Shown in pieces: positions 1 through 17,075 of a stretch of 36,166 bases of DNA (the stretch's first letter is position 1; each line of letters begins with the position of its first letter). This DNA comes from Pseudolactococcus hodotermopsidis. GTDB lineage: Bacteria > Bacillota > Bacilli > Lactobacillales > Streptococcaceae. Position numbers and translations under genes: made by a program. The notes beneath the pieces are model-generated. The model worked only from the letters and a program-made list of their open reading frames with translations, was not told the origin of the DNA and searched no databases. The stretch covers positions 1 through 36,166 of the forward strand of contig NZ_BLLI01000015.1 of the NCBI RefSeq assembly GCF_011170085.1, in the 5' to 3' direction.

Positions 1-162
1 CATATCTTCAACTGATAATTTACTGTGACGACCTCGACGGTTATGTTTTTCATGATAAGCGGTCTTAAGAAGACTGCTCATAGATTCAAAGGTTGGACGT
101 TTAACGCCAACTAGACGTTTAAAATGATTATCGCTGAGTTTGCTGAGGGATTCATAGTTCAT
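1..162 (-). CDS. IS5-family transposase, N-terminal fragment
   Basis: The reading frame starts at ATG 162 and stays open to the window edge (54 codons). The product begins MNYESLSKLSDNHFKRLVG and continues with a basic stretch, NRRGRHSK. This resembles the N-terminal DNA-binding part of IS5-group DDE transposases found in lactococci and streptococci. The catalytic DDE core would lie off the left edge, so activity cannot be judged. The C-terminal end of a similar protein is seen at 36003-36166, in a separate copy at the other edge. Confidence 0.7.
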   Translation of the reverse strand, partial: MNYESLSKLSDNHFKRLVGVKRPTFESMSSLLKTAYHEKHNRRGRHSKLSVEDM

Positions 163-204
163 GACTATAGTATAACAAATTTTTTTATTTTTGGGAGAAG
201 TCTA
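1..204 (-). mobile_element. IS5-type insertion sequence, right end (partial, runs off the window)
   Basis: This is the promoter-side end of an insertion sequence. It holds the first 54 codons of a transposase and ends at a terminal repeat, GGGAGAAGTCTA at 193-204. The same 12 bases appear inverted as TAGACTTCTCCC at 35987-35998, next to the 3' end of a matching transposase, so both window edges are copies of one IS family in the same orientation. The outer boundary at 204 is inferred from this repeat match. The rest of the element lies outside the window. Confidence 0.75.
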
Positions 205-362: not shown

Positions 363-2555
363 ATGAATCCAATCAAATTCAAAACACTGAAATTTTCACT
401 CCCATGCCTTTTGCTTATTGGCATGATGTCACTTTTCTTGGGACAAGTGAGCCTTTCAGCTGACGAGGTAACATTGCCCAAAACAAGAGGGGTTTTTGGG
501 GAAGATAATCGGCAAATCATCACTGATTTCTCACAAAAACCACATCGAGCGTCTGTGCGTATTTCTGTCCAATTTCCAAATAAAGAGGTAATTTCAGCAA
601 GTGGTACCTTGATTAACAATGATTTTGTTGTCACTGCAGCACACGTTCTTTATAGTAAAGAACACGGCGGAATGGCGATTTATGCAACAATTGGTGCAGG
701 TGCAATCGCTGGTAACCCAACGCTCGGTGTGGCGACAGCCGAAAAATTCTTCATCACAGAAGAGTATGCCAAAGGTGGCTTTTATAACTCAATCGTTGAC
801 GTTGGCGGTATTAAATTAAGCACAAAATTGGGCAATTCTGCTACAACTTTGTTAGTTCAGCCAAATGTTTCAGTTGGTGAAAACTTGACGGTTTCAGGTT
901 TTTCTTACGATTTAGAAGGGTATCTTGGCTCTGATGCTGGCCCGATTGATAGCCTTTCAAGTCATGTTGTTCGTTATAAAATGGACACGATTGGTGGCGC
1001 TTCAGGTGGTACAGTTGTCAATGATCGCAATGAAATTGTCGCTGTTCATTCGGGACAAGATGGAAAATATAACATCGGTGCTCGTTTATCAGGCTATAAT
1101 CTTGAACAGCTTAAAAAATGGACAACTGTTAATATAGCACCAGAAAAAACGACTTATACCCTTTCTTATCAGCTAAATGGTAGCTCTGGCAAAGTACCTG
1201 ATAAAATAACTGTTGCTGATAAAGAAACAATTAAAATAACACCTAATCAGCCTGTTCGCCCTGGTTATGATTTCCTCGGTTGGTCAACTAATATCAATGC
1301 AACAACTGCTGATTATCAAGCTAATGATACTTTGACAGTCACTAAAGATACAATATTATATGCCATTTGGCAGTCAAATGGTAGAGCGGTTTACACACTT
1401 TCTTATGACCTGAACGGCGGCAATAGTACAACACCTCCTGCTGTCGTAGCGGAAAATGGTGCTGAGCTTAAAATAACAAATGACAAACCCAACCGTCCTG
1501 GTTACGATTTTTTAGGATGGGCAGATGATGCAAATGCAACGACTGCGCAATATCAGACTAACGACAGTTTCAAAATTGCTCGCTCACTGAACCTATATGC
1601 GATTTGGGCGCAGAAGCCTGTTGTACTTCATACAATAACTTTTGATTTAAATGGAGGCGATAGCGAAGTACCGACTGCGCTTACGGCTGAAACAGAAACA
1701 ACAGTCAAACTTCCTAGCACTATTCCTAATCGTCAAGGCTACCTCTTTCTCGGTTGGGCAGAAAATGCGACAAGCATTACTGCGACCTACAAGGCAAATG
1801 CTGAAATCTCAGCGGAAAAATCGCTGACTTTATATGCGATTTGGGCGATTATTCCGCAAGAACATCTGATTACTTACGATTTGAATGGGGGCAATGGGGT
1901 AAAACCTGCGAATTTATTTGTAACTGACAAGACAACTGTTCGTTTGACAACACTCTTGCCAACTCGGGCTGGTTATGAATTTGGTGGTTGGTCAGAAGAT
2001 CCAACGGCAAAATCGGCGACTTATCTACCAGCTGCAACCTTTACAGCAACTCATTCAACAACTTTGTATGCGGTTTGGCAACATATCCCGAAAACTTATA
2101 CGCTGACTTATAATCTTCATGGTGGCACAGGTGTGAAATCTGAAAAAGTGACGACAACTAGCGGTACAGCAGCGCAAGTTATGCCACAAACACCAACACG
2201 AAAAGGCTATCATTTCTTGGGTTGGGCAGTTTCTTCCTCTGCTAAAATCGCTGACTATCCTATCGGCACTGCTATTAGCATTGAAAAAAATACGACTTTA
2301 CACGCACTTTGGGTCAAACGTGTTGATTATACAGTCACTTACAATTTGAACGGTGGCACAGGTGTGAAAATTGATAAAGCCATTGTTGAGAAAGGATATA
2401 GCCTGAATATTACTTCACAAACACCGACTCGAAAAAACTATACTTTCCTTGGTTGGGCGACAAGTTCGTCTGCTAAAACAGCGACTTATCGGGCAAATAA
2501 TCTTTTTGTTCCTGAGAAAAATGTTACTTTATATGCAATTTGGTTGAAAAATTAG
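363..2555 (+). CDS. Secreted trypsin/V8-like serine protease with six Flg_new (Listeria-Bacteroides) repeats
   Basis: The 730-residue product starts with a Sec signal peptide (basic start, hydrophobic core about residues 10-28, probable cleavage after VSLSA). Residues about 50-255 form a chymotrypsin-fold protease of the glutamyl-endopeptidase (S1B) type with a complete apparent triad: His94 in TAAHV, Asp146 in IVDVGGIKL and Ser214 in GGASGG. From about residue 265 to the end are six tandem repeats of about 75 residues, each with YDLNGG, a GYxFLGW core and a closing LYAIW. These match the Flg_new/InlB B-repeat family. There is no LPXTG or other anchor, so it is either released or held through the repeats. 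An AGGGGG ribosome site lies about 8 bases before ATG 363. The gene stands alone behind a palindrome-controlled promoter. The substrate cannot be read from sequence. Confidence 0.85.
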   Translation: MNPIKFKTLKFSLPCLLLIGMMSLFLGQVSLSADEVTLPKTRGVFGEDNRQIITDFSQKPHRASVRISVQFPNKEVISASGTLINNDFVVTAAHVLYSKEHGGMAIYATIGAGAIAGNPTLGVATAEKFFITEEYAKGGFYNSIVDVGGIKLSTKLGNSATTLLVQPNVSVGENLTVSGFSYDLEGYLGSDAGPIDSLSSHVVRYKMDTIGGASGGTVVNDRNEIVAVHSGQDGKYNIGARLSGYNLEQLKKWTTVNIAPEKTTYTLSYQLNGSSGKVPDKITVADKETIKITPNQPVRPGYDFLGWSTNINATTADYQANDTLTVTKDTILYAIWQSNGRAVYTLSYDLNGGNSTTPPAVVAENGAELKITNDKPNRPGYDFLGWADDANATTAQYQTNDSFKIARSLNLYAIWAQKPVVLHTITFDLNGGDSEVPTALTAETETTVKLPSTIPNRQGYLFLGWAENATSITATYKANAEISAEKSLTLYAIWAIIPQEHLITYDLNGGNGVKPANLFVTDKTTVRLTTLLPTRAGYEFGGWSEDPTAKSATYLPAATFTATHSTTLYAVWQHIPKTYTLTYNLHGGTGVKSEKVTTTSGTAAQVMPQTPTRKGYHFLGWAVSSSAKIADYPIGTAISIEKNTTLHALWVKRVDYTVTYNLNGGTGVKIDKAIVEKGYSLNITSQTPTRKNYTFLGWATSSSAKTATYRANNLFVPEKNVTLYAIWLKN

Positions 2556-16620: not shown

Positions 16621-16675
16621 TTGGTATCGTCCATCTTCCAGTACCAAGTTTAACATTTATGGTATTTTATGTCAA
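16621..16675 (-). promoter_or_regulatory. Lipoprotein gene promoter with interrupted palindrome
   Basis: On the minus strand TTGACA (16670-16675), 17 bases, then TAAACT (16647-16652) with an extended TG. An interrupted inverted repeat TTGGTA...TACCAA spans 16621-16647 around the start site, and CCAAATTTGG lies next to it. These could bind a repressor or form a 5' hairpin; no regulator is identified. Confidence 0.65.
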
Positions 16676-16694
16676 GTTATATCGAGTTTTGGAC

Positions 16695-16936
16695 CACGGG
16701 CGTTTCATAAATTTAATTTTTCTGGAATATACATGTAAGTTGTCGATTTAATTTTTAGTTAATCTATTTTAAAAGTTATTTTCGTAGAAATATTTTTAAA
16801 TACTAAAGTTATTGATTGTATTTTTTAATATTTTTGAAAAAACAAGTGACTTTTTCATGGATTTTCCGTTAAAAAGCAACTCTTCGTAAAAGATTCCGAA
16901 AATTATGTTTTAGATTAAACTTATGAAACGCCCGTG
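16695..16936. mobile_element. MITE-like element, 242 bp, with perfect 16-bp terminal inverted repeats
   Basis: The ends are CACGGGCGTTTCATAA (16695-16710) and its exact complement TTATGAAACGCCCGTG (16921-16936). The match extends inward as TTTAAT after one mismatch. The element is flanked by a direct repeat AGTTTTGGAC (16685-16694 and 16937-16946), as expected of a target duplication. The interior is AT-rich with no coding capacity. Terminal repeats, target duplication, short length and lack of a transposase together define a MITE. The parent transposon is not identified. Confidence 0.8.
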
Positions 16937-17075
16937 AGTTTTGGACACAACAAACGCATGATTCTCTCCTCAAAAATTAGAGATGCGATTTGAAAACAAC
17001 ATCCATCATATTTAAAGCAGCTGCTTCAAAATTTACATAGAATTACAGCAACTAATATTTCATTTCTAAAAATTT

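What the first reader, a model, noticed from the sequence alone, without database searches (positions are those of the whole stretch)
16685..16946. 242-bp MITE-like element with perfect ends and target duplication
Sixteen-base perfect terminal repeats (CACGGGCGTTTCATAA), a 10-bp flanking direct repeat (AGTTTTGGAC) and a non-coding AT-rich interior show a recent MITE insertion. It lies between the lipoprotein promoter and the end of the trp operon. I do not recognise the family. The target length suggests an IS4- or IS256-like mobiliser.
Basis: seen in the sequence. Interest (0 to 1): 0.6.

Follow-up and report, generated by a model that had tools for sequence, protein, structure and literature searches.

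The report
ISAs1-driven MITE in Lactococcus genome
A 242-base piece of non-coding DNA next to the trp operon of a Lactococcus-like bacterium is one of about ten copies of a small 'hitchhiker' transposon that has no enzyme of its own and is very probably moved by a larger transposon of the ISAs1 family in the same genome; it is a new example of a familiar kind of mobile DNA.

Summary
A 242-bp element (16695-16936) has perfect 16-bp terminal inverted repeats and lies between two copies of a 10-bp direct repeat. It belongs to a mobile family: the same draft genome holds 11 matches, namely five intact copies of 241-242 bp (the window's included), one of 232 bp, one of 208 bp, one cut by a contig end and three fragments. 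Six of seven copies with both flanks readable have perfect 9-10-bp target duplications. Sites without the element exist at three other insertion points; the window locus could not be tested. An ISAs1-family insertion sequence in the same genome has nearly the same ends (26 of 28 bases), and seven copies, inferred by pairing contig ends through their target repeats, show the same 9-10-bp duplications. An intact 1,181-bp relative in another genome of the genus encodes a 366-aa ISAs1 transposase. Verdict: an ISAs1-associated MITE, a new member of a known kind. Transposition in trans is inferred, not shown.

The parts
16685..16694 (.). left target-site duplication AGTTTTGGAC (10 bp)
16695..16936 (+). 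MITE, 242 bp, non-coding, 75.6% A+T (orientation arbitrary)
   Evidence: 10 further matches in the same genome
16695..16717 (+). left terminal inverted repeat (first 16 bp perfect, 23 bp at 96%); the first 28 bases of the element match the right end of the ISAs1-family element at 26
16914..16936 (-). right terminal inverted repeat
16937..16946 (.). right target-site duplication AGTTTTGGAC
16647..16675 (-). context only: promoter-like site (TTGACA, 17 nt, TAAACT, with TG) facing the lipoprotein gene; 19 bases lie between it and the element
   Evidence: consensus match only; number of sites found equals the shuffle mean

Best explanation
[quoted passage not shown] It codes for nothing and moves when the transposase of an ISAs1-family insertion sequence, most likely the coresident one, binds its ends and joins it to a staggered cut of 9-10 bp; host repair then leaves the flanking direct repeats. 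Shown here: several copies, perfect ends, 9-10-bp duplications, sites without the element, and an ISAs1-family element with nearly identical ends and the same duplication lengths in the same genome. Inferred: that this transposase acts on the MITE in trans, and whether movement is conservative or replicative. The window copy sits between trpA and a lipoprotein gene, 19 bases from the lipoprotein's promoter-like site, and probably has no large effect there.
For: Eleven matches in the genome. Target duplications in 6 of 7 copies with both flanks readable: 10, 10, 9, 9, 9, 9 bp. Of the 36 near-matches to the end in the genome, 17 are MITE ends, 18 are insertion-sequence ends and 1 (C42) is untraced; 17 of the 18 read CACGGTCRTTTCATAAATTTAATTTATC and 16 of the 18 lie 125-233 bases from a contig end. 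Seven of 8 left ends pair with 7 of 8 right ends of this element through a shared 9-bp (5) or 10-bp (2) target repeat, so at least 7 copies are inferred with the MITE's duplication lengths. MITE left end against that right end: 26 of 28 bases from the first base on (24 of the first 25). The right end reads as ISAs1 transposase. A complete relative in G002 (1,181 bp, identical 21-bp ends, 366-aa frame without stops) scores 310 bits for NF033564 and carries PF13808 + PF01609; three G002 copies pair by 9-10-bp target repeats. Sites without the element: C83 in 6 of 6 paralogous regions fetched; C94 in 5 of 5 relatives fetched for it and C51 in the 1 fetched.
Against: Position 6 of the end is G in both ends of the main MITE lineage and T in all insertion-sequence ends read, so the true helper may be a variant missing from this draft. 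The middle of the transposase gene is not in the assembly held, so an intact helper gene in this genome is not demonstrated; the C96 copy is old and carries a stop. Past about 25-28 bp the MITE shares nothing convincing with the insertion sequence, so its origin is unexplained. The C8 copy has no target duplication. One left and one right insertion-sequence end stay unpaired, and the old C22/C96 pair agrees at only 7 of 9 target bases. The complete G002 element, the only one read end to end, shares just 18 of 19 bases with the MITE and no MITE was found in G002, a genome that is 70% complete.
Confidence: 0.9

Rival explanations
1. Sub-case of the best explanation, so its odds overlap with it: the MITE is mobilised by another, unseen ISAs1-family variant whose ends begin CACGGGCG, not by the coresident CACGGTC element.
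For: Both ends of the main MITE lineage carry G at position 6 where all insertion-sequence ends read here carry T; the assembly is a draft in 138 contigs.
Against: Every exact CACGGGCGTTTCATAA end in the genome belongs to a MITE copy (13 of 13, set); one MITE copy (C8) has T like the insertion sequence; duplication lengths match the coresident element.
Confidence: 0.2
2. A MITE moved by an IS4- or IS256-like transposase.
For: About 10-bp target duplications also occur in IS4-type elements (recalled); the genome has 9 DDE_Tnp_1 matches, some not of ISAs1 type.
Against: The element sharing the ends is ISAs1 by NF033564 (310 bits; the next family, IS1380, has 46 bits against a cut-off of 180). 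Of 36 near-matches to the end, 35 are MITE or ISAs1-type ends. No IS256 search was run.
Confidence: 0.03
3. A fixed, non-mobile intergenic repeat or structured regulatory RNA with chance flanking repeats.
For: Strong fold; the six sites examined are intergenic or at a gene end.
Against: Perfect 9-10-bp repeats that differ from site to site, sites without the element, no Rfam match.
Confidence: 0.02

Closest known systems
ISAs1-family insertion sequences (ISAs1; IS1548 of streptococci)
   Same: End sequence and 9-10-bp target duplications match an ISAs1-family element of the same genome. PMC11946415 (passages read) gives 14-22-bp ends starting CAGGG and a 10-bp repeat. PMC5548910 (passages read) gives IS1548 as ISAs1 family with 19-bp imperfect ends and a 377-aa protein.
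   Different: The MITE has no transposase gene and is 242 bp, against 1,181 bp for the complete relative in G002; its ends start CACGG, not CAGGG; its interior is unrelated.
MITEAba12 of Acinetobacter (mobilised by ISAba12)
   Same: Same logic: ends shared with a coresident insertion sequence and 9-bp target duplications (PMC6382973, passages read).
   Different: 111-114 bp, and the related insertion-sequence ends in that paper's table start GGCTTTGTTGC; movement of MITEAba12 was caught, here it is inferred.
MITEPye1 of Paracoccus yeei (IS1182 family)
   Same: Non-coding, multicopy, mostly intergenic, ends shared with an insertion-sequence family, long fold (PMC11578231, passages read).
   Different: Other helper family and other host.

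Membership tests
MITE (non-autonomous DNA transposon) | short, no transposase gene | tested here: met
   242 bp, no ORF of 80 aa or more overlaps it
MITE (non-autonomous DNA transposon) | terminal inverted repeats | tested here: met
   16 bp perfect, 23 bp at 96%
MITE (non-autonomous DNA transposon) | several dispersed copies | tested here: met
   11 matches in one genome
MITE (non-autonomous DNA transposon) | target-site duplication of near-constant length | tested here: met
   6 of 7 copies with both flanks readable: 9 or 10 bp; C8 has none
MITE (non-autonomous DNA transposon) | sites lacking the element | tested here: met
   C83: 6 of 6 paralogous regions, aligned 21-24 bases left of the junction and beyond it on the right; C94 and C51 in relatives with diverged flanks. 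Not testable at the window locus
MITE of the ISAs1 family | ends shared with an ISAs1-family insertion sequence | tested here: met
   26 of 28 bases with the coresident element; 18 of 19 with the complete G002 element, which is NF033564/PF13808/PF01609
MITE of the ISAs1 family | same target-duplication length as the insertion sequence | tested here: met
   MITE 4 x 9 bp and 2 x 10 bp; coresident element 5 x 9 and 2 x 10; G002 element 1 x 9 and 2 x 10
MITE of the ISAs1 family | ends begin CAGGG, as PMC11946415 gives for ISAs1 | tested here: not met
   MITE and coresident insertion sequence both begin CACGG; the transposase is nevertheless ISAs1 by NF033564. I take the motif as typical, not defining
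MITE of the ISAs1 family | transposed by that transposase in trans | not testable with these tools
   needs a transposition assay
MITE of an IS4- or IS256-type element | ends shared with an IS4/IS256 insertion sequence | tested here: inconclusive
   the matching element found is ISAs1, but no IS256 search was run and the DDE_Tnp_1 matches were not all classified

The most novel reading that the evidence does not exclude
A MITE driven by an ISAs1-family transposase that is not yet described, in a Lactococcus lineage, with a matched change at position 6 of both ends that suggests selection for a transposase variant.
Probability: 0.45. Interest if true: 0.35.

Novelty: new member of a known kind. 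Interest (0 to 1): 0.25.

Why it matters
It ties a MITE family to its likely helper from one draft genome by three lines of evidence: shared ends, shared target length, sites without the element. In my limited paper searches I saw no ISAs1-driven MITE reported. I read passages of only 5 of the 11 papers that hold both 'ISAs1' and 'MITE'; one of them (PMC5756416, Aeromonas) reports three new MITEs whose helper family I did not see, and the 20 of 272 papers listed are mostly about dust mites and other arthropods. The work also explains a repeat next to the trp operon and, at another copy (C51), one lying 11 bases from a purine riboswitch aptamer.

Tried and rejected
Simple internal deletion of the insertion sequence as the origin: rejected, as similarity stops about 25-28 bp from either end. 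Direct empty-site test at the window locus: failed; in 8 Lactococcus-type loci (7 Lactococcus records and one Streptococcaceae MAG) blastn found no lipoprotein gene after trpA, and only 3 gave a match, about 30 bases of the trpA end. Structured RNA: no Rfam match. Plasmids: no match for the MITE or for the insertion-sequence left end; the protein search found 848 records, all under 60% identity (the 20 rows listed are all 34.1%). Exact 23-base end pattern: 0 in genome contigs (records near this genome may be left out) and 1 in viral contigs, whose contig length (22,998) equals that of C37 of this genome, so probably the same DNA. Other relatives: one search gave 3 of 59 genomes (own, G006, and a 30-base piece in G044); one search gave 45 of 335 family genomes, of which only the own genome and G006 (67% identity, left end decayed) are full-length, the other 43 being pieces of about 22-60 bases; one search scored only two candidates per genome. 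C94 in further relatives: judged by coordinates only, G001, G004 and G011 also have too little space for the element; G006 has about 1.28 kb of other DNA with its own reading frames there and no MITE. Copies C3 and C16 may be two halves of one copy split by another insertion sequence; their outer flanks do not match, so this stays open. C42:4269 resembles an end but was not traced to an element.

Full report
What is there. The element runs from 16695 to 16936 (242 bp) with perfect 16-bp terminal inverted repeats that extend to 23 nt at 96%. A 10-bp repeat, AGTTTTGGAC, lies at 16685-16694 and again at 16937-16946.

It is a family. In the genome of the window (G000, 2.3 Mb, 138 contigs) the element has 11 matches. 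C15 (the window), C83, C51, C31 and C2 are intact at 241-242 bp. C94 (232 bp) has lost 10 bases near its left end. C8 (208 bp) is 34 bases shorter, mainly through one 33-base internal gap. C21 is cut by its contig end. C74, C3 and C16 are fragments. Ten copies differ from their consensus at 0.4-2.1% of positions; C8, left out of the consensus, differs at 4.8%. Of the seven copies with both flanks readable, six have perfect duplications: AGTTTTGGAC, CACGTTGTAT, AACTACAGG, ATGGCAAGG, ATAATTTTC and TTAAAAGCC; C8 has none. The six sites are intergenic or at a gene end, judged from reading frames of the joined flanks.

Sites without the element. At C83 the insertion lies at the edge of an array of units of about 98 bp. 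Sister units in C42, C46, C81 and C5 of the same genome and in two regions of G011 (6 of 6 regions fetched) align without interruption across the point, from 21-24 bases left of it, duplicated bases included, to well right of it. The target bases occur once there, best in C46 and C42 as CACGTTGTA. At C94, G003, G007 and G010 have 53 bases where this genome has 281 (40 would be expected of an exact empty site), and G005 and G008 also lack the element but carry about 70 bases of their own. G006 has about 1.28 kb of other DNA there without a MITE. At C51, G011 lacks the element together with about 200 neighbouring bases. At the window locus relatives have other sequence after trpA, so no test was possible.

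The helper. The end sequence has 36 matches at up to two mismatches in the genome, against 3 for the reversed control. Seventeen are MITE ends, 18 are insertion-sequence ends, and one (C42) is untraced. Of the 18, 17 read CACGGTCRTTTCATAAATTTAATTTATC, and 16 lie 125-233 bases from a contig end, as ends of collapsed multicopy elements do. Leaving out the old copy C22/C96, eight left and eight right ends remain; seven of each pair up through a shared target repeat of 9 bp (five) or 10 bp (two), which implies at least seven copies. The C33 left end and the C16 right end stay unpaired, and C22/C96 agree at only 7 of 9 bases. The right end encodes an ISAs1-type transposase C-terminus. In G002, of the same genus and 70% complete, an element of 1,181 bp with identical 21-bp ends encodes a 366-aa protein without stops that is ISAs1 by NF033564 at 310 bits and by PF13808 + PF01609; three G002 copies pair by 9-10-bp repeats. 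The MITE's left end matches the own-genome element at 26 of 28 bases and the G002 element at 18 of 19. So the mobiliser is most likely ISAs1-type, not IS4 or IS256.

What is not shown. The middle of the transposase gene is not in the draft assembly as searched, so an intact helper gene in this genome is inferred. Position 6 is G in both ends of the main MITE lineage and T in the insertion-sequence ends; only the C8 MITE copy has T. This may mark a different helper variant. The ends start CACGG, whereas PMC11946415 gives CAGGG for ISAs1. Transposition in trans needs an assay.

Distribution. Among 12 genomes of the genus (own included) only G006 has a relative, at 67% identity with a decayed left end. 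In the family search only these two of 335 genomes had full-length matches; 43 more had short pieces; that search scored two candidates per genome. By TrpA the host is nearest to Lactococcus raffinolactis, laudensis, chungangensis, reticulitermitis and insecticola at 82-84% identity.

Effect. Nineteen bases lie between the element and the promoter-like site of the lipoprotein gene, and a simple scan finds no promoter-like or terminator-like site inside it, so no strong local effect is predicted. The C51 copy lies 11 bases from a purine riboswitch aptamer, on the upstream side of a phosphoribosyltransferase-like gene (the gene is named from reading the translation).

Literature. MITEAba12 (PMC6382973) and MITEPye1 (PMC11578231) are close parallels with other helpers (passages read). 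ISAs1 features were taken from passages of PMC11946415 and PMC5548910. I saw no ISAs1-driven MITE in five searches, having read passages of only some of the papers listed; PMC5756416 reports three MITEs whose helper I did not see. The kind of thing is well known; this family appears to be undescribed, as far as these searches reach.

On recounting I changed 4 of 6 to 6 of 6 for the C83 regions, the distance to the promoter-like site from 20 to 19 bases, and the test against IS4/IS256 to inconclusive.

Noticed in passing
L159 (G000:C51:15000-17134), MITE at 1035-1276, riboswitch at 928-1023 (-): The C51 copy of the MITE lies 11 bases from a purine riboswitch aptamer (Rfam RF00167, 54.6 bits), on the upstream side of a gene that reads like xanthine phosphoribosyltransferase; it may have displaced the native promoter.
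   Followed up: partly
L159:1283-1386: A second small element of about 104 bp with perfect 18-bp inverted ends (AGGGCATCTCTAAAAACT); the MITE's target repeat AACTACAGG overlaps its left end, so the MITE is inserted at the edge of another mini-element. A 95% copy lies at C8:17799-17902.
   Followed up: partly
G000, 41 matches listed, e.g. C7:49266-49392, C96:1-127: A repeat of about 126 bases with end TGTCAAGCGAAATTGAAAATGTCC, often near contig ends (40 of 125 candidates scored): probably the end of a very abundant insertion sequence, IS21-like by recall only, which also interrupts the C22/C96 ISAs1 copy.
   Followed up: no
G000:C83:6779-7018, C42:11-211, C46:33-264, C81:1933-2305, C5:48669-49059; also G011: Tandem repeat with a unit of about 98 bp (...CACGTTGTAGATAGCTACTTCCCTAACCTCTTCGCGACTTCGTCGCTCAATCGC...), also in other genomes of the genus; no Rfam match in the two pieces scanned, L197 and L202.
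   Followed up: partly
window 14-204: The window's left contig end is 89% identical to the stretch left of the C31 MITE copy, which also recurs at C1, C51, C75 and C81: probably the end of another multicopy insertion sequence, with GGGAGAAGTC at its edge; the same motif borders the C3 and C16 MITE fragments.
   Followed up: no
G000:C16:127-505: A MITE fragment abuts an ISAs1 transposase reading frame at about codon 293: the MITE appears to have inserted into a copy of its own presumed helper.
   Followed up: partly
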